64,000 nucleotides of DNA from Eremomyces bilateralis CBS 781.70 (taxonomy: Eukaryota; Ascomycota; Dothideomycetes; Eremomycetales; Eremomycetaceae), in NCBI RefSeq assembly GCF_010015585.1, contig NW_022985067.1, positions 1,334,621 through 1,398,620 of the forward strand. Reading direction: 5' to 3'. Shown in pieces: positions 39,907 to 52,169 of the stretch (position 1 is its first letter; each line of letters starts with the position of its first letter). The notes beneath the pieces are model-generated. The model was given only the letters and a program-made list of their open reading frames with translations, was not told the origin of the DNA and made no database searches. The position numbers and the translations under genes are program-made.

Positions 39907-41668
39907 TTATACAGAATATATAAGAGCGTGGATGACTTTAGACAGTGGGCGGCGGGAAGGCTGAAAATGATATAGCGCGGAAGGATAGGACATCAGCAGC
40001 TTGACGACACCCTCGCGCCCGTTCTCGGCCGCCCACCACAGCGGCGTCTGACCGTACTTATCCTTCGAGTCGACGTTGGCCTTGGCCTCGAGCAACAGCT
40101 TGACGATGCCCTCCTGCCCAAAATATGACTCTACCATCAGAATTCTTGTGAACTGTGGATTGGAGTGCCACTGGTGAGCCATCGACCAGTATACATCGAA
40201 CCGACTCTTGAACCGCTGGGATCGGGTATCGCAGACTCTAGAAACCAAGTGCAACATTTGCTCGGTTGCGCTATGCTGTGCTTTTCGGTAGTGGGCAGCC
40301 CAGGAACCTACGGCATAATCTAAGTAGCCGTGTTTGACTGCGGCAGAGATCTGATCTGTCGCTCTATCAAATTCAGTTAACGAAAGATATATAAGGCATA
40401 CTCTGGCCATAAGGAGCTCAGAATCCGTTGGAACAAGAGAATGTTTCCATCCAATAGCAGCGGCCTCACTCTTCGTGAGAAGGAATTCTTTTGCGGTTTG
40501 ATGGATCAGATAGACGTTTCGATCTACTACGGTCACAAAGAGCCCGCAGAGTTGTCTTACCGACGCTTCAAACCTCGCTTATCGTCAAGGTCAGGTTCAA
40601 GGTCGTTGTAGGAGCGATGATGGTCTTCTATATCTAGAGCGATGTTCATTTCCTTTAGTGTAAGAGGCCTGGTTGCTCCAACAACGATATAGAGCAATTT
40701 CCGTGCTTGTGGTCGATCATCCTCCTCCATTTTTGTAAGAATCGCTTCGTATGCTTCATCAACCGTGGACGGAAGGCCACTGATAACAGCCTTCAATTTC
40801 CGACTTGTCGGTCGAATCATTTTGCGAATGATATCGAAAATGAGTGTTACCCTGAGGTATGTTCGGTGACATATTGTTAATAGCTCTGTTTCGAGATTTG
40901 ACTGTTCTGAATTATTAAGCTTAAGCTCAGACCCGAATTGAGATACTCTCCATTTAATAACTTGGTTGATCTCATGACTGATTTTATCTGATTCTTGCTT
41001 GCCGCGCAGCCGAATCGTTGGAAAGTTAGAAGTAAGATCGGTGAATCGCCGTTTGATGTCTGGGTAAGGATGACTAGTGACACATATTTTGAGTTGAGAC
41101 GTATTGTTTCCGGAGATTGCTTGCTGGTAGAATGAACTGAGAGCGGTAATAATCTGATACTGCCCTGCTTCTGCGCATTCGTCGAGGGCATCTAAGACGC
41201 AAAAGACTTCTCCGGTATTCCGATCAGCCACGGTTTTTATTAGAATACTCCAGAGTGTATGAGATGGTTGAGAAAGTTTATCTCCATTAGCAGCGAAATC
41301 CAACATAGTATATTTGATAAGTGTTGGTTTCCGCCGAAAGAGCTGGTGGAGTAGTGCCGCAAGCGCTGTAACTGCACTTTTCTGTACGTCGTCATCTTTG
41401 AAGAAGAAGTAGCAAGTTGTGTGACCGTCCGTGTTTTTAAGGTCGCCGGCAAGAGATTTAGTGAAAACCGATTTTCCGCATCCAGGATCCGCAGATATCC
41501 AAAGAAGACTTGAGGAGCTGCTGTCTTTCCAGTTTCGGAAATTGTCATGATGGAGAACCCACTGGCAGGTATCTCTAAGTCGGCTAGAATTCCTGTCCTT
41601 GAACTGCTTGTAGTCGAAAGTCGAAGTACGCAGGGCTTGCATACAGTTCCGTTCCTTGTCGTTCCTGC
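39907..41668 (-). pseudogene. NACHT-ankyrin (NLR-like, STAND) protein, 5'-truncated and frameshifted
   Basis: Fungal NLR-like proteins are signal-transducing NTPases linked to non-self recognition and regulated cell death. The NACHT module starts at RNDKERNCMQALRTSTFDYKQFKDRN (split across the junction at about 41668). It has Walker A in ISADPGCGKSVFTKSL, Walker B in VFCVLDALDECAEAG, and the winged-helix-like region ending RPLTLKEMNIALDIEDHH. The frame stops at 40557 (GLKRR then stop). The homologous continuation, VRQLCGLFVTVVDRNVYLIHQTAKEFLL, resumes at once in another frame, so a single-base-type frameshift lies at about 40560-40585. The C-terminus has only about two ankyrin repeats (GQEGIVKLLLEAKANVDSKDKYGQTPLWWAAENGREGVVKLLM), then non-ankyrin sequence to a stop at 39907. 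Any N-terminal effector domain is missing: upstream of codon RND the sequence becomes a transposase relic. Probably non-functional. Confidence 0.82.
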
Positions 41669-42818: not shown

Positions 42819-44686
42819 CTATTTGCCTCCACAGCCAATATCCGGTGGGCCGCCCGAATCCACCACTGCCTGTCTCACACAATTCCATTGTTGTGCGCCA
42901 ACCGGGAGGTGACCGTAGGCATACCACTCCAAGTTATCCTTATCCGACTCCTCCCTGTATTCAAACTTCCATGCAGTAACGACGCCACATCTCCGCAGAT
43001 TGGGCAGCAATTTGTCCTGGCCATAATCGCCTTCCGCCCAAAGTCCTCCATGGATAAAAAACTCGGCGTGCCAGAATTTATACCATACATCGCACGTGCC
43101 GGGTAATTTTGCGGGGATTGGGTCTGGGCGTGAGCGCGCAGGCTCAACGAGGTACGTATAGATTTCTTTTTTATCTTTGGTAAAAGCGTACGCGCCGCCA
43201 TGCTTCCAGTTTGTTGATGTGTCACAACCGTGGAAGATCTTAGACATGGCGCTGTTACATTGCCTTTCGACCTCGTCCGAGGGTAGGGTGCCATCACTTG
43301 TTCGATGGAGTTTGAACCGGACCTGCCCTGGTAACCCTTCGTCGTACTCGTGTTCAATCCTGCCACTAGAAAATGGCTTGTACTCGGCAGCTACCTTGTG
43401 GCAGAAGTCTTTAATAAATTTGTCCTGGCTCTTGTCGACGTATTCATTGTCGTAGCCGAAACATTGTAATTCCTCATCTAATGGTTCTTTCTTCGCTGGA
43501 GGGGGGAGGAATCCGAACTTTGACGTGAAAAAGACAGCTGGCAGTGTGTCAGTGCTACTAAAGCCCCAGCTTATATAAAGATACGTACCGTTAACGAACT
43601 GCGTATAGCTGTCTGCATTTTGAACTACATCCTCTGTCCTCGCCTTGGCCTTCAAAACCCAGTCAGCAATTAGGGGAGCCGTGTAGGCCCGCTCGCCCTG
43701 GTAATATTTATCAGGAACTATGTCCCCAGTCAGCTTTAATCAAATCAGGATCATTAGCCGCCTTACCATGCGGTCGGTCCGCAGTGATGAGGTTGATATG
43801 CATCATCTCATGGAGCATCTTGCCAGCATCGTTCTGACAGCCAAATTAACGCTTGTAAGCACGAGCATGTCGATATGGTTTACCTCGAGATAGTCCATAG
43901 AAACCGCCTTAAAGTCGCTGCTTGTGGGCCAATACCTCGCCACCTCGCCAGGCGTAAGCGTCAGAAAAAATGGCTCACATAGAACAACGTCGTAATGCCA
44001 TCCTCCTAGAAAATGATAGGTATTCTCGGCATACCCGGCGACCACCCTAAGAAATATAAGTGCTTGAATCTGTAAAAGTTATCGCCAGGAACACTCACTG
44101 GTTCGCCCCTCCGGGCTTTTTCTTACATGTACCGCTGATATCCGTGCAGTGGACATCCTATAGAGCTAGATCAGTTGGATGATACCATCCCAATGTGAGC
44201 TATAAAATAACAAGAATTTCCCTTTAGGAAAGCTAATACGTGAAAATGTAATGAGTAACGTGAGAGTGGAAGGGAGGACACCAAATCATCTTACTAACTC
44301 ACAATAACCCTACTAAGAAACGGTACTCTCCCATCTAACAATGTAATACTTTGCAAATTTGCATGTACCCTCTGTGCAAACACGTTCTCTTTGTACTTTC
44401 CATCATTTGGAATAGCCAGATATGTTGCTGCAGCCTCACCATGCTTGCCCTCATCCCACCATTCCTTTAACGCCAGCTTTGCCATCGTACGAGCATTTTT
44501 CACGGCGCTAGCAACCTTCTGATACCGGTTAACATCTTTGAGCTGGCTATCCGGTTTACGGCAGGCATCCTCGATCCGGTAAGGAATGAAGTCTTCGCGT
44601 TTTTCGAGAGCGCTTCTGATAGGGGTAATAGGAGGAGGGATAGCCAGGGCTACCAAAGGTAGAATAAGAAACAAGAAGGTACGCAT
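42819..44686 (-). CDS. secreted HExxH metallopeptidase (fungal putative-peptidase family)
   Basis: Likely an extracellular zinc metallopeptidase. Six exons (44303-44686, 44099-44157, 43884-44046, 43767-43833, 43589-43717, 42819-43537) join in frame to 506 residues; each intron is GT..AG and the fourth is only 49 nt. The ATG at 44686 opens a signal peptide, MRTFLFLILPLVALA; the frame extends further upstream only with non-ATG codons. After a possible pro-region comes GYAENTYHFLGGWHYDVVLCEPFFL. The zinc-binding helix is KMLHEMMHINLI (HExxH) in exon 4, followed by a candidate third-ligand region, ERAYTAPLIADW. Cysteines in VHCTDISGTC, ELQCFGY and DVGC-like positions suggest disulphides. The C-terminal 235 residues are a domain I do not recognise (HAEFFIHGGLWAEGDYGQDKL). 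The general layout recalls lysine-specific/deuterolysin-like fungal zincins; exact family uncertain. Confidence 0.85.
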
Positions 44687-46695: not shown

Positions 46696-46840
46696 AAGGT
46701 TGGCTGCACCGTGCACTCTTAGTCGAAAGTTCATCTTAGGGCTGAGAGTGGGACTGATGAATTGCACGATCCGGACCAAAACAGATATGTATTGGTGAAG
46801 GTCTAAACTGAGCTAATGCGTATGTCTGTGGAGAAGATAT

Positions 46841-47331
46841 TAGGGCTGGACACGAATATTCGACTATTCGTATTCGTACGAATATTCGTAGTCGAATACG
46901 AATAAAATTTAGAATTTCCGCTTACTAATATTCGTACGAATAATATTCGCATTATTCGTAATTATTCGTAATTATTCGTCTATCTCTGAAGCTATTTCCA
47001 TGTATCTCGCATCGGAGAGATGGTCGACAGAGAGCTTTAAGCTGGGGTCACTTGGCTTGCTGAATCGTCAGGAGTGATCAATTCGACGCTATTGATATGC
47101 TTTGTATCTCTTAGAGCTCAAATCCTCCAGATCGTGTTCGGGTAAACAAAAGTCGCGACTGTTGGGCATTCATTCATTGGCTCGGCTTTTGCCGAATAAG
47201 TCTTGGCATTATTTACGAATATTCGCGAATAATACGAATAAAACGTCTCAAAACTTAGTCGAATACGAATAATCGTTCAAGAGGAAAAGTCGAATACGAA
47301 TAGCCAAAATCCTTATTCGTGTCCAGCCCTA
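46841..47331. mobile_element. non-autonomous hAT element (MITE), 491 bp
   Basis: Terminal inverted repeats TAGGGCTGGACACGAAT and ATTCGTGTCCAGCCCTA bound the element. It is flanked by a perfect 8-bp duplication, GAAGATAT (46833-46840 and 47332-47339), the hallmark of the hAT superfamily. The interior has many ATTCG/CGAAT words in both orientations near both ends and no coding capacity. The termini differ from those of the adjacent autonomous element, so another transposase must have moved it. Confidence 0.93.
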
Positions 47332-47350
47332 GAAGATATGGAGATACAGG

Positions 47351-50088
47351 CAGGCTGGCTAATCGAGGCGTCGCGAGGCGTCGCGAGGGATGACTAAGCG
47401 CCTCGCCTCGCCTCGCCTCGATTGCATACTAAACCGCCTCGCGACGCCTGCTGGAACCATGGTTGAGCGTACCAAAAGATGAAATTCCGTAATCCTGTAT
47501 GCCATACAGAGGTCGATATCACGGTGAGGAGGATGGTGAAGACGGTGGTGGTGAAGATCGCATACTATATTCTCCTAGCTAGACTCCTCCTCCTCGTCGT
47601 CGTCATTATCCACCGCTAGATTCGCTTGTGAGAAGACGATCTTCTCGAGATCAAGATCACTAATAATACCATTTCTAAACCAATGCTGTAGACACACCAA
47701 CTTCCTCAACGTCTTCGCGTTCATACGGGCTCTCTCTGTGTCCAGGAGTCGCCCACAGGAGGACCATATCCGCTCCATATCCGCGGCGGATGCTGGAGTG
47801 GCAAAAAGGTCCATAGCGATCCTATAGAGAGCTGGAAATCGCGTACGATTAGCAATCCACCATTCCATAGGGGCCTTCATCTTCTCCTGAGGCTCGTTGA
47901 GATATTCAGAAACCTCATCCACGGAGGAGATTTCCTGTGGTTCAAATCCAGGCCCCCAAGAACCTAAGAAGTCCTGGTAGGCGCTCCGCACGGTATGATC
48001 CGTTGACGAAGAGCTCTCTGGGACGGATATATCTTGCCGTAACGTGGCGACAGACTCACGTAATTTAGTAATGACTTGAGCCGTGCTAGGGTTTTTCGGT
48101 TCCTTGAGATCGAAGAACCTTTTCTTATATCGTGGATGAAGCAATACCGCGAGCATATACGCAGGAGTCTGCGGGTCCCTCATTTTAAGTTGGTATTTCA
48201 TCGCCTTAGAGAGGGCTCTCTGTAGAGGCGATGCGAGCTCCTGGAGAACCGGTCGCCTCGGTATCTCCGCGATCAAAGAGACTAAATCTTTCACGATCAA
48301 GTGGATAACGAGGTAAGATTCGAAAAGAGCTCCTTCAGCACCATCCTCAGCGTTACTTTCTAGGATTTTGGAGCGAATAAGGAAGGGGTGGTAAATCGCT
48401 TGGAGCTCTTCTAGAACAGCCCAATCAGCCCCTGTAAGCCCCTGGAGAGAGGCGTGTCTTGCGCAGTACTGATCAATTGTAGCGCGTAAACGGAGAGCAC
48501 GACTAATCGAGTCGTATCTTGTATTCCACCGTGTCTGGTTTTCACGGATAATACGGAGAGGCTGATCGCGACGTCGCTGAGATTGATCGACCATACCCTC
48601 TAAAATAGTGGTTTGGATCGTCAAGAACTCTTGCTCACGTTTCGAGCTACTTTTGATATGGGTAATGATAGACTTGAGGCGTTCAACGGAGACCACATCG
48701 ACATTCGTTGGAAGCGTAGGACTTCGAAGATTCTGTCCTGGATGGCCAGGAATGCCACTGTCCTGCGTACATTGAAGGCCATCTGACTCGTCGTTGTCCG
48801 TGCCAGCCAAATGGTCGGTAGATAGCTGTTTGCATATCAAATTAACGATATGATAGGCGCATCGTAACCGTTTTCCAGAGACCGGGATATTAGTAATATT
48901 TCCAAGCTCTTCTACCGCCGTGGTGTTATTATCTGCGTTATCAGACATCAAGTAAGCGATCCTTTCCTTGATCTTATACGCCTGTACGGTGTTTTTCATG
49001 ATCCGTGATAGATTTCGCCCTGTATGAGCTCCTTGAACCTCTTCCACAGTGAGGAGGGTATTCCGTTGGCGTGGTGTTTCACCGCCGGAGATGAAATGGG
49101 CCTCGATACCAAAGAAGGGTATATCGGTCGCAGACGTCCAGATGTCATACGACAACGAAATCTTGCTGGATGCACGCGAAAGTGTATGGGACACAAGAAC
49201 AAGGCATTCTTCGTATACCTTGGCCACCCTATTGTATACGGATTGGTGGTTCTTTACTCTGAGCTGTGGATCTCCACCGCTCAAAGATTCCATCAATCCG
49301 TTGTGTGCCACAGAAGAGGCCTGGCGAAATGGTATACCGTCGAGGATCACCCATTTTAAATACGCCGCATTGACATTCAAGAGCCCATTCCGGAGAGGCA
49401 GAGAATGGTGATGGAGAGCCCACGATTCACGAGATCCAGGAGGGATTACCTGTGATCCACGGCTCAAGAAAGAGTGATCTCTTATAAGATGGTCTCGTGC
49501 AGACGACGTCGCGCCGACCCTATAGAGCTTTAAATCGAGGTTGGATCGAGCCCTTCGCCAACAGATATAGCAGACCCAATATGGAATATCTTCCTCCTCG
49601 TCTACTCTGCGAGCGACGAATCCCCAGTCCCATACAACGCTTCGCTTTCGCGGGCTAGATAAGCGATGATACTCTTTCACGAGGGAGAGACCGTATTCAC
49701 GGAGAAACTCTGGATCAGGCGTGAAATCTCCTATTCCGCCGGGGTCAGGAGCATACTCAGAAAAAGAGGAGGAAAACGATGGTAGAGACGACTGTAAAGA
49801 CGACATATTGATATCGATTCTATACGTTGAGAGTAATCTTGATATTATACATATATTGACTTTGGATTTGACCAAAACCTCCTCAATATTCATGACTCCA
49901 GCTGGAATGTTTAATGAGCTCACCAAATCCCATAGAATCTGGGTCACATCCAGAAGATACGGACTGAGATGATGAAAGATTGGTAGAATAGGACCAAATG
50001 GGTCTAGCGAGACCTTTCCAACCCGCTTATTAATTATCCGAAGATATACCGACTGCCTCGCGACGCCTCGCCTCGATTAGCCAGCCTG
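47351..50088 (-). mobile_element. complete autonomous hAT transposon, 2738 bp
   Basis: Ends are CAGGCTGGCTAATCGAGGCG (47351) and its inverted copy ending ATTAGCCAGCCTG (50088). The flanking 8-mers GATACAGG (47343-47350) and GATGCAGG (50089-50096) match at 7 of 8 positions. CGAGGCG/CGCGAGG words are repeated within about 90 bp of the left end and 40 bp of the right end, as hAT subterminal binding sites are. It contains one long transposase gene on the minus strand. Confidence 0.93.
47575..49806 (-). CDS. hAT family transposase
   Basis: A single uninterrupted reading frame of 743 codons from the ATG of MSSLQSSLPSFSS (49806). An upstream in-frame ATG at 49893 (MNIEEVLVK) is also possible. An N-terminal BED-type zinc finger is seen in WVCYICWRRARSNLDLKLYRVGATSSARDHLIRDH (split here for reference: WVCYIC and DHLIRDH). 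The first catalytic Asp is in SLSYDIWTSATDIPFFGIEAH and the second in YLMSDNADNNTTAVEELG. The third acidic residue lies in the C-terminal dimerisation region ASAADMERIWSSCGRLLDTERARM, which ends LRKLVCLQHWFRNG. The C-terminus is acidic (DNDDDEEEESS). With intact ends and all motifs, the element may still be mobile. Confidence 0.95.
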   Translation of the reverse strand: MSSLQSSLPSFSSSFSEYAPDPGGIGDFTPDPEFLREYGLSLVKEYHRLSSPRKRSVVWDWGFVARRVDEEEDIPYWVCYICWRRARSNLDLKLYRVGATSSARDHLIRDHSFLSRGSQVIPPGSRESWALHHHSLPLRNGLLNVNAAYLKWVILDGIPFRQASSVAHNGLMESLSGGDPQLRVKNHQSVYNRVAKVYEECLVLVSHTLSRASSKISLSYDIWTSATDIPFFGIEAHFISGGETPRQRNTLLTVEEVQGAHTGRNLSRIMKNTVQAYKIKERIAYLMSDNADNNTTAVEELGNITNIPVSGKRLRCAYHIVNLICKQLSTDHLAGTDNDESDGLQCTQDSGIPGHPGQNLRSPTLPTNVDVVSVERLKSIITHIKSSSKREQEFLTIQTTILEGMVDQSQRRRDQPLRIIRENQTRWNTRYDSISRALRLRATIDQYCARHASLQGLTGADWAVLEELQAIYHPFLIRSKILESNAEDGAEGALFESYLVIHLIVKDLVSLIAEIPRRPVLQELASPLQRALSKAMKYQLKMRDPQTPAYMLAVLLHPRYKKRFFDLKEPKNPSTAQVITKLRESVATLRQDISVPESSSSTDHTVRSAYQDFLGSWGPGFEPQEISSVDEVSEYLNEPQEKMKAPMEWWIANRTRFPALYRIAMDLFATPASAADMERIWSSCGRLLDTERARMNAKTLRKLVCLQHWFRNGIISDLDLEKIVFSQANLAVDNDDDEEEESS

Positions 50089-50096
50089 GATGCAGG

Positions 50097-50525
50097 TGTG
50101 TCCGTGGATCACGTGACACTGCCACAGGGACGAACCTGCAGCCTCTTAAGGTACCGAAGCATCTTGTGCTTGAAACCAGTCATTATTGAGTTGAGGGAGT
50201 GCGTGGCAGGTAGGCACATCACGTGGGATGGGTGGGAAATGTCGAAATGATTGGGGCTTGGACATTTGACCACATACTGTCAACGGAATGAAGATGGGCG
50301 ATTACGGACTCTGACCAACCACCGGAACGTTTGCGGCCCGGCGAGCACCCCGCTTCCTCTGCATTACCCCAGATCTCTGGAACGTGTAGGTAGCTCGGGC
50401 AGTTGACGATGGAGCTTAGCTCCGGTAGGCTTTATATAAGAAACGCCTGCTCAGCTTAACGCGCGGCGCTTTCGAAGTCCTTCTTACCAGCCCATACCGC
50501 CGTTCAACTGACGAAACCACTCAAA
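50097..50525. other. promoter region of the FAD monooxygenase
   Basis: Lies directly between the hAT element and the monooxygenase start. A TATA-like TTTATATAAG is at about 50430, some 95 bases before the ATG, and CACGTG-type words occur at about 50110 and 50220 (ATCACGTGA, ATCACGTGG). These may be regulatory sites; that is inference. Confidence 0.45.
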
Positions 50526-52169
50526 ATGTCGGCGAAAGATATGAGAATCTTTCCCCCTAGCGGGATCGAGATGCTGATCGTTGGTGGCGGGATTGCGGGG
50601 CTCACTTTGGCGATCGAGTCGTACAGGAAGGGCCACAAAGTGCGCGTGATTGAACGACGAGACAATTTCGACGGCCTTGGTATGATACCTTCTGATCTGC
50701 ATAAGCCAAGTTGCTAACGATGGTCTGCGGAAAGGGGATATCTTCGGTATCAGTGGTCCCGCCTTCCGGAGTCTGTTGAACTGGCCCGGGTTTTATGATC
50801 GGCTGCTTTCTCAAGCGCTGAGACCGGAGATCCATTTCTATAAATATGACGGCTCGTGGATTTACGACATGCCCGGTTTAGAAGTCAACGGCAGACTCCT
50901 CGGGTTCATGCTCAGTCGAGCCCACATGCATGACGTATGTCCGCTTCTTGGAGACCTACTTTCTATTCGGGCTAATCCCGGATAGTGTCTGTTTGAATAT
51001 GCGAAAGAACTGGGAATACCTATTACGTTTTCCCAGCAGGTCGTCGAATACTCCGAAGACGCGGAAAGAGGTTTCATAAAGCTTTCGGATGGGTCGGTGC
51101 TTAGTGCAGACATTATTGTCGCCGCTGATGGAGTTGGATCCCAATCACATACTCTGATCTCCGGCCGCAAGACACAGCCTATTAGTAGTGGGTATGCCTT
51201 ATACCGAGCCACCTTTAATCTCCAGGATGCGCTAGCAAATCCTGCCGTCAGGGCCTTCTGGGGAGACAAGCCGGAGTACGTTAGTATCTTTATCGGGCCT
51301 GATGTGCACATCGTCATGGGAAGAAATGACGCGAGAAATACCATGTGCTGGTTGCTAACCCACAAAGACACTGACAATACCTCGCGGGAGTCGTGGTCTG
51401 CTACGACCAGGGCCTCCAATGCGCTGAAATTCGTGGCCCCTGAACTTGGTTGGACAGAACACATCCGCGCGCTGATCAGATCGACCACGAATGACGAGTG
51501 TATCGACTGGAGGCTCATGTGGCGCGATCCACAGCCGGTATGGCACTCTCCCCGAGGCCGTGTGATTCAGGCCGGGGACTCGTGCCATCCCTTCTTACCA
51601 TCATCGGGGAGCGGAGCGGTGATGGCTATGGAGGATGCGTACTCGTTGGCAGCATGTTTGCAGCTTGCCGGAAAAGAGGGAATTTCTTTGGGAGTCCGGG
51701 TACATAACAGGCTGCGGTGAGTCTCCATCCAAGATCATCTTTATTCGGCGGCAACAGGCCGCTTCCCACGATAGTTACTGATGATGGGAATGTTAAGTTT
51801 CGAGCGTGTTGCGTGTGCCCAAAAGATGGGATTCAAGGCGCGTCACACCTGGCATCAGGGAAACTGGGACGAGATCCATCGAAACCCAGCGGCGGTACTG
51901 CGCACCATGTACGTACTGACCAGGAACCTACATCGCGACGTCTACACATAGATTGACCAACGTTTAGGGGGAAATGGCTCTTCATGCACGACGCAGAGGG
52001 CTATGCGTACGAGAACTTTGGCAAGTGCCTCGGCGAGATTCTGAATGGTGCCCGTTTCGAAAACACCAACATTCCTCCGGGGTACATGTACAAGCCATGG
52101 ACGGCACAGGAGCTAGTGGACAAGAGTGCTGCTGGAGAAGATATCTTGGATGAAGGGGACTGGTCGTGA
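50526..52169 (+). CDS. FAD-dependent monooxygenase (salicylate hydroxylase-like, group A)
   Basis: A flavoprotein hydroxylase of the kind that decorates aromatic or polyketide substrates, or acts in aromatic catabolism. Five exons (50526-50679, 50735-50934, 50986-51716, 51798-51908, 51968-52169) give 465 residues. The Rossmann FAD motif MLIVGGGIAGLTLAIESYRKGHKVRVIER is at residues 16-44. The DG motif is ADIIVAADGVGSQSHTL, and the GD motif RVIQAGDSCHPFLPSSGSGAVMAMEDAYSLAACL is at about residues 320-353. The tail (NIPPGYMYKPWTAQELVD ... LDEGDWS) is the usual ending of fungal group-A monooxygenases. All motifs are intact. The substrate is unknown. Such genes often sit in secondary-metabolite clusters; an aldo-keto reductase follows 1.7 kb downstream in the same direction. 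Confidence 0.92.

What the first reader, a model, noticed from the sequence alone, without database searches (positions are those of the whole stretch)
46833..50096. Two hAT-type elements from different families inserted 19 bp apart, both with 8-bp target duplications
A 491-bp hAT MITE (46841-47331, duplication GAAGATAT, perfect) is followed after only 19 bases by a complete 2738-bp hAT element (47351-50088, duplication GATACAGG/GATGCAGG). Their terminal repeats differ (TAGGGCTGGACACG versus CAGGCTGGCTAATCG), so two transposase systems chose almost the same spot. This may mark an insertion hot spot or an open-chromatin site. Each set of termini and duplications is read directly from the sequence.
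Basis: partly seen in the sequence, partly recalled or inferred. Interest (0 to 1): 0.75.

Follow-up and report, generated by a model that had tools for sequence, protein, structure and literature searches.

The report
Transposon that lands beside E-box motifs
Two unrelated jumping genes do sit 19 bases apart here, but the surprise is that the copies of the larger one found in this genome lie in one orientation about 12 bases from a short regulatory word (CACGTG), as if guided there by a bound protein.

Summary
A 491-bp hAT MITE (46841-47331, perfect duplication GAAGATAT) and a 2738-bp hAT element (47351-50088, GATACAGG/GATGCAGG) are separate insertions 19 bp apart, from two families with different transposases. 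The window lies in a 26.6-Mb fungal genome.

In element orientation an E-box lies on the same side (the transposase 5' end) in 9 of 9: CACGTG in eight, CACCTG in one. Spacing from the duplication is 12 bp in seven and 13 bp in two; one copy (C23) lacks a clean duplication and its 12 needs a 2-bp shift. Two copies have a second CACGTG on the other side, both at 11 bp. CACGTG occurs once per 6.4 kb genome-wide, so eight of nine by chance is about 1e-27. The MITE's family has none within 40 bp of 35 insertions.

So the larger hAT is most likely an oriented, motif-directed inserter, perhaps docking on a bHLH factor bound there. A hot spot shared with the MITE is not shown. No empty allele or second species could be examined.

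The parts
46833..46840 (.). left target duplication of the MITE, GAAGATAT
46841..47331 (.). family-C hAT MITE, 491 bp, 18-bp perfect terminal inverted repeats TAGGGCTGGACACGAATA
47332..47339 (.). right target duplication of the MITE, GAAGATAT (perfect)
47343..47350 (.). left target duplication of the hAT-A element, GATACAGG
47351..50088 (-). hAT-A element, 2738 bp; transposase read on the minus strand, so its transposase 5' (right) end is at 50088
47575..49947 (-). transposase open frame, 790 aa, Dimer_Tnp_hAT PF05699 (E 8.9e-19); BED-like C-x2-C-x23-H-x4-H spacing seen in an alignment of three
50054..50055 (.). junction at which 44-45 bp of right subterminal repeat, present in the three other long copies, is missing
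50089..50096 (.). right target duplication of the hAT-A element, GATGCAGG (one mismatch to the left one)
50109..50116 (.). TCACGTGA E-box (core CACGTG 50110-50115), 13 bp beyond the right duplication; the proposed targeting signal
50220..50225 (.). second CACGTG, 300 bp upstream of the next open frame; no role shown
50526..50717 (+). open frame with FAD/NAD-binding oxidoreductase matches, taken as a first exon; the insertions lie upstream of it

Best explanation
The larger element (family hAT-A) is a cut-and-paste hAT transposon whose strand-transfer complex is placed by an E-box. A dimeric CACGTG-binding protein, most likely a host bHLH factor of the Cbf1 kind (recalled, not identified here), docks on the side of the transpososome that holds the element's right end, so the element joins DNA about one helical turn (12-13 bp) from the motif with its right end towards it. 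In the window this put hAT-A 13 bp from CACGTG at 50110. The MITE 19 bp away is an independent insertion by a different hAT family with ordinary relaxed specificity. SHOWN: insertions, families, duplications, the spacing, the side, and the absence of the rule in family C. INFERRED: that a protein bound at the motif does the guiding, and that it is a host bHLH protein rather than the transposase's own zinc finger. UNKNOWN: the order of the two insertions.
For: In element orientation (set by blastn) an E-box lies at 12 bp (7 copies) or 13 bp (2: window and C9) beyond the duplication on the right side in 9 of 9 paired-end copies: CACGTG in 8, CACCTG in 1 (C61). Their 300-bp flanks share no match over 24 bp (best E 0.008; C23's right flank was only 67 bp), so they are separate sites, not one repeat. 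CACGTG occurs 4130 times in 26.6 Mb; at least 8 of 9 by chance is 7.7e-28; leaving out C23 (7 of 9) is about 1e-23 by my arithmetic from that rate. In an agnostic 6-mer scan CACGTG is the top word (8 of 9); 500 draws of nine random window sites never exceeded 3. The 7 copies with an E-box on one side only all have it on the right. Family C: 0 of 35 insertions within 40 bp. The four non-autonomous copies (C4, C6, C9, C13) obey the rule too, so selection for transposase expression is not needed.
Against: Only nine insertions, one genome. C23 has no clean duplication: measured from its terminal repeat the spacing is 14, and 12 only if the duplication is shifted by 2 bp. C61 has CACCTG, not CACGTG. 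Sister families do not share the rule clearly: B has CACGTG at 10 bp in 1 of 4 copies and CACATG at 16 bp in another; D has none within 36 bp of 12 flanks. No host factor was identified or tested; the structure model of the transposase was unusable (mean pLDDT 42.7). CACGTG is clustered here (112 pairs with 20-45 bp between, 12 for the reversed pattern), which raises the local rate, though not by the orders needed.
Confidence: 0.6

Rival explanations
1. The hAT-A transposase itself reads CACGTG: spare BED zinc fingers of a ring-shaped multimer (as in Hermes) that are not used on the right end grip the E-box in target DNA.
For: C-x2-C-x23-H-x4-H spacing near the N terminus is kept in two distant relatives. 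In Hermes the left end takes several BED domains and the right end none (abstract and passages of PMC10368747), an asymmetry that could give one-sided insertion. The four hAT-A MITEs carry an internal TCACGTG about 86 bp in from the right end.
Against: The ends of the four long copies are built of CGAGGCG-type repeats and those copies hold no CACGTG at all (L001-L004), so the finger's own end sites look different. Pfam gives no zf-BED match even at E up to 5.
Confidence: 0.25
2. Open promoter chromatin is the real attractant: both families insert in nucleosome-free promoters, and CACGTG is merely common there.
For: A review lists DNA accessibility among target determinants (passages of PMC10512250; that Hermes favours nucleosome-free DNA is recalled). 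CACGTG is clustered. The window site lies upstream of an oxidoreductase-like frame.
Against: Openness predicts a broad spread on both sides, not 12-13 bp on one side in 9 of 9; family C, 35 insertions, has no CACGTG within 40 bp. Whether the nine sites are promoters was not tested systematically.
Confidence: 0.08
3. The site is a shared hot spot used by both transposase systems.
For: 19-bp gap; 0.0005 to 0.005 such A-C pairs expected. An A copy (C9) and a B copy (C5:745524) also sit immediately behind the same 34-bp word.
Against: Only one close A-C pair among 9 A and 35 C copies; family C shows no common flanking word; picked after the fact.
Confidence: 0.15
4. The E-box is part of an older repeat into which hAT-A inserts, or belongs to the element.
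For: C9 and C5:745524 share about 34 bp of left flank.
Against: Perfect duplications at 7 of 9 sites place the element ends inside the E-box; 300-bp flanks show no shared repeat.
Confidence: 0.02

Closest known systems
Hermes (hAT, Musca domestica)
   Same: hAT chemistry, 8-bp duplications, C-terminal dimerisation region matched by sequence, unequal ends
   Different: Hermes target preference is nTnnnnAn within the 8 bp (passages of PMC10368747 and PMC10512250); the passages seen mention no fixed outside motif or orientation
Tf1, Ty1, Ty3 and Tn7 (recalled, no call)
   Same: integration placed by a DNA-bound host or element protein; Tn7 is also oriented
   Different: retrotransposons or a bacterial system, not eukaryotic hATs
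Pokey piggyBac in rDNA (PMC3849761, start of abstract in a listing)
   Same: a eukaryotic DNA transposon with a specific site
   Different: targets rDNA, not a dispersed regulatory motif at fixed distance and side
Transposon calling cards (PMC9428926, start of abstract in a listing)
   Same: insertions mark where a transcription factor sits
   Different: a laboratory technique; here the pattern is natural
hAT MITEs (general knowledge)
   Same: the 491-bp family-C element is an ordinary member
   Different: nothing essential

Membership tests
hAT superfamily (hAT-A element) | 8-bp target duplication | tested here: met
   perfect in 7 of 9, one mismatch in the window copy, unclear in C23
hAT superfamily (hAT-A element) | hAT C-terminal dimerisation domain | tested here: met
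   PF05699 E 8.9e-19; four Hermes-type chain sequences matched
hAT superfamily (hAT-A element) | short terminal inverted repeats | tested here: met
   30 nt, 87% complementary, starting CAGG
hAT superfamily (hAT-A element) | N-terminal BED zinc finger | tested here: inconclusive
   Cys/His spacing invariant in three sequences; no Pfam zf-BED match
hAT superfamily (hAT-A element) | transposition activity | not testable with these tools
   the other three long copies are 99.78-99.82% identical to the window copy over 2715 bp, which suggests recent movement only
hAT MITE (family C, 491 bp) | no transposase of its own, ends shared with a transposase-coding partner | tested here: met
   13 copies of 2.57-2.67 kb share the ends; PF05699 in 10 of 13
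hAT MITE (family C, 491 bp) | 8-bp duplication with nTnnnnAn bias | tested here: met
   30 of 35 perfect; T at 2 or A at 7 in 32 of 60 positions, p 2e-6; the window's GAAGATAT has the A at 7 only
factor-tethered integrators | fixed spacing to a factor-binding motif | tested here: met
   9 of 9 at 12-13 bp, with the C23 and C61 caveats
factor-tethered integrators | physical contact with the factor | not testable with these tools
   needs protein work

The most novel reading that the evidence does not exclude
A eukaryotic hAT cut-and-paste transposon has evolved oriented, fixed-distance integration beside a transcription-factor site by docking its transpososome on an E-box-bound bHLH protein: a natural calling-card transposon, whose insertions record where that factor sits and bring its own promoter end next to an activator site.
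Probability: 0.45. Interest if true: 0.88.

Novelty: new variant of a known kind. Interest (0 to 1): 0.7.

Why it matters
Cut-and-paste transposons of eukaryotes mostly choose targets loosely (general knowledge). A hAT that lands at one distance and in one orientation from a six-base regulatory motif would be a natural targeting system, would make the question of how cut-and-paste transposases choose sites directly testable in yeast, and would show how such elements could repeatedly rewire promoters.

Tried and rejected
Empty site: the joined flanks found only the window locus itself. Relatives outside this genome: none in viral contigs or prokaryote genomes; the protein search gave three distant hits, with 7995 candidates scored. 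The species was not identified: a lariat debranching enzyme elsewhere in the window is 46-55% identical to the best 120 listed of 3101 hits, whose named top rows are fungi such as Aureobasidium and Westerdykella (their class, Dothideomycetes, is recalled). Structure: too poor to search with, so no fold search was made. The chromatin, shared-repeat and 'E-box belongs to the element' readings were set aside for the reasons given under rivals.

Rows dropped before counts. Family A: of 21 terminal-repeat matches, 17 are ends of the nine copies; four single ends were left out: C34:10729, C3:918927, C7:820563 (no CACGTG in the 52 bp before the 8-mer) and C31:61710 (CACGTG at 12 bp, but not classifiable as hAT-A). 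A looser search (38 matches) showed no further paired copies by eye. Family C: of 79 end matches, 70 are the 35 pairs; nine single ends were left out. Family B: 4 paired copies used of 16 matches at up to 2 mismatches; one of the four (C31) has no clean duplication, and a B-like end at C12:179010 was seen on one side only, without CACGTG. Family D: 12 ends used of 14 matches; only 2 of its 5 paired copies have a perfect duplication, so its insertion edges are less sure.

Paper searches in which no listed title or abstract start describes an E-box-directed or oriented hAT: no paper; one each; 12 of 15 listed; 12 of 21; 3; 11; 12 of 43. I opened passages of two papers only. The library lacks most subscription journals, so absence from print is not established.

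Full report
OBSERVATION. The two insertions are as described: MITE 46841-47331 with perfect 8-bp duplications, three bases, then the duplication and body of a 2738-bp hAT element ending at 50088. The hAT has an open 790-aa transposase frame on the minus strand with the hAT dimerisation domain. The window is part of contig C1 of a 26.6-Mb genome in 62 contigs. A protein elsewhere in the window is closest, among the best 120 listed hits, to fungi such as Aureobasidium and Westerdykella, so the host is probably a filamentous ascomycete; the species is unknown.

FAMILIES. Family A (window hAT): nine paired-end copies, namely four long ones (2738, 2782, 2782, 2783 bp; the other three are 99.78-99.82% identical to the window copy over 2715 bp), four of 294-365 bp, and C23 (2545-bp span, only partly fetched). 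Family C (the MITE): 35 paired-end copies, at least 8 of 491 bp identical, and 13 of 2.57-2.67 kb, 10 of which carry the hAT domain. So two transposase systems are involved. Duplications are perfect in 7 of 9 (A) and 30 of 35 (C) copies. Family C follows nTnnnnAn (32 of 60 positions, p 2e-6), the pattern reported for Hermes (passages).

THE E-BOX RULE. Reading family A flanks, CACGTG stood 11-13 bp outside the 8-mer repeatedly. After setting every copy in the orientation of the window element by blastn, the right side (transposase 5' end) gives: window 13, C61 12 (CACCTG), C5 12, C16 12, C4 12, C6 12, C9 13, C13 12, C23 12 (14 if measured from its terminal repeat; that copy has no clean duplication). 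The left side has CACGTG at this distance only in C4 and C6, both at 11. The 7 copies with one E-box have it on the right. Read outward, the core is preceded by T in 7 of 9 and followed by A in 7 of 9 (both in 5), so TCACGTGA is the commonest full form. CACGTG occurs 4130 times in the genome, so at least eight of nine at 12-13 bp on one given side is 7.7e-28 by chance. Motif and spacing were noticed first and tested afterwards; allowing for every 6-mer, side and offset (about 1e5 choices, my arithmetic) leaves it overwhelming, and nine random window sites never exceeded 3 in 500 draws of an agnostic scan. CACGTG is clustered here (112 pairs with 20-45 bp between, 12 for the reversed pattern), which cannot supply the needed factor.

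CONTROLS. Family C: no CACGTG within 40 bp of any of 35 insertions; in the joined empty site the window MITE would lie 24 bp from the E-box, now separated from it by the hAT. Sister family D (12 flanks; 2 of 5 paired copies with a perfect duplication): CACGTG only at 37 and 41 bp. Sister family B: one of four copies at 10 bp on the right, another with CACATG at 16 bp, a possible weaker form of the habit. The 300-bp flanks of the A sites share no match over 24 bp.

MECHANISM. Fixed distance plus fixed side means that something bound at the motif holds the transpososome in one geometry (inference). A host bHLH dimer is favoured because the element's own ends contain CGAGGCG-type repeats and the long copies no CACGTG. 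Direct reading by BED fingers is the main rival; in Hermes one end is bound by several BED domains and the other by none (abstract and passages), so a built-in asymmetry is available to either model. The four A MITEs hold an internal TCACGTG about 86 bp from the right end; its meaning is unknown.

THE 19-BP NEIGHBOURS. The E-box accounts for where the hAT is, not for where the MITE is. Chance expectation for an A-C pair this close is 0.0005 to 0.005. The order of insertion cannot be told, since neither duplication is interrupted. A paralogous empty site was not found. The window hAT has lost 44-45 bp of right subterminal repeat and has one mismatch in its duplication, so it is slightly decayed.

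NOVELTY. In nine paper searches no listed title or abstract start describes an E-box-directed or oriented hAT; the library is partial and not every match was listed. [quoted passage not shown] I rate this a new variant of a known kind.

Noticed in passing
G000 C9:544890-544965 and C5:745450-745523 (L006, L097): A family-A MITE and a family-B element sit directly behind the same 34-bp word AGCTCATCTGAGAGTGGGCCGACCTGCAGCCTC; four more near-copies of its 21-base core were found, three of them followed by CACGTG, CACATG or CATGTG within 24-63 bp: perhaps a promoter module.
   Followed up: partly
G000 C4, C6, C9, C13 hAT-A MITEs (L041, L045, L047, L049): Internal GTATCACGTGTTG about 86 bp in from the right end in 4 of 4, absent from the four long copies.
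   Followed up: partly
G000 C1:1004159-1006756 (L062, L063): A 2573-bp family-C element seems to be inserted within the first 25 bp of the end of another family-C copy (judged by eye).
   Followed up: no
G000 C32:145062 and C12:235707 (L128, L131): Two family-D ends have the same flanking sequence, as if in copies of one repeat (judged by eye).
   Followed up: no
G000 C31:61710 (L059): A lone end similar to the hAT-A terminus with CACGTG at 12 bp; not classifiable.
   Followed up: partly
window 40557-41642 and 42819-43655: Frames with Nephrocystin-3/NACHT-type NTPase and fungal lectin matches.
   Followed up: no
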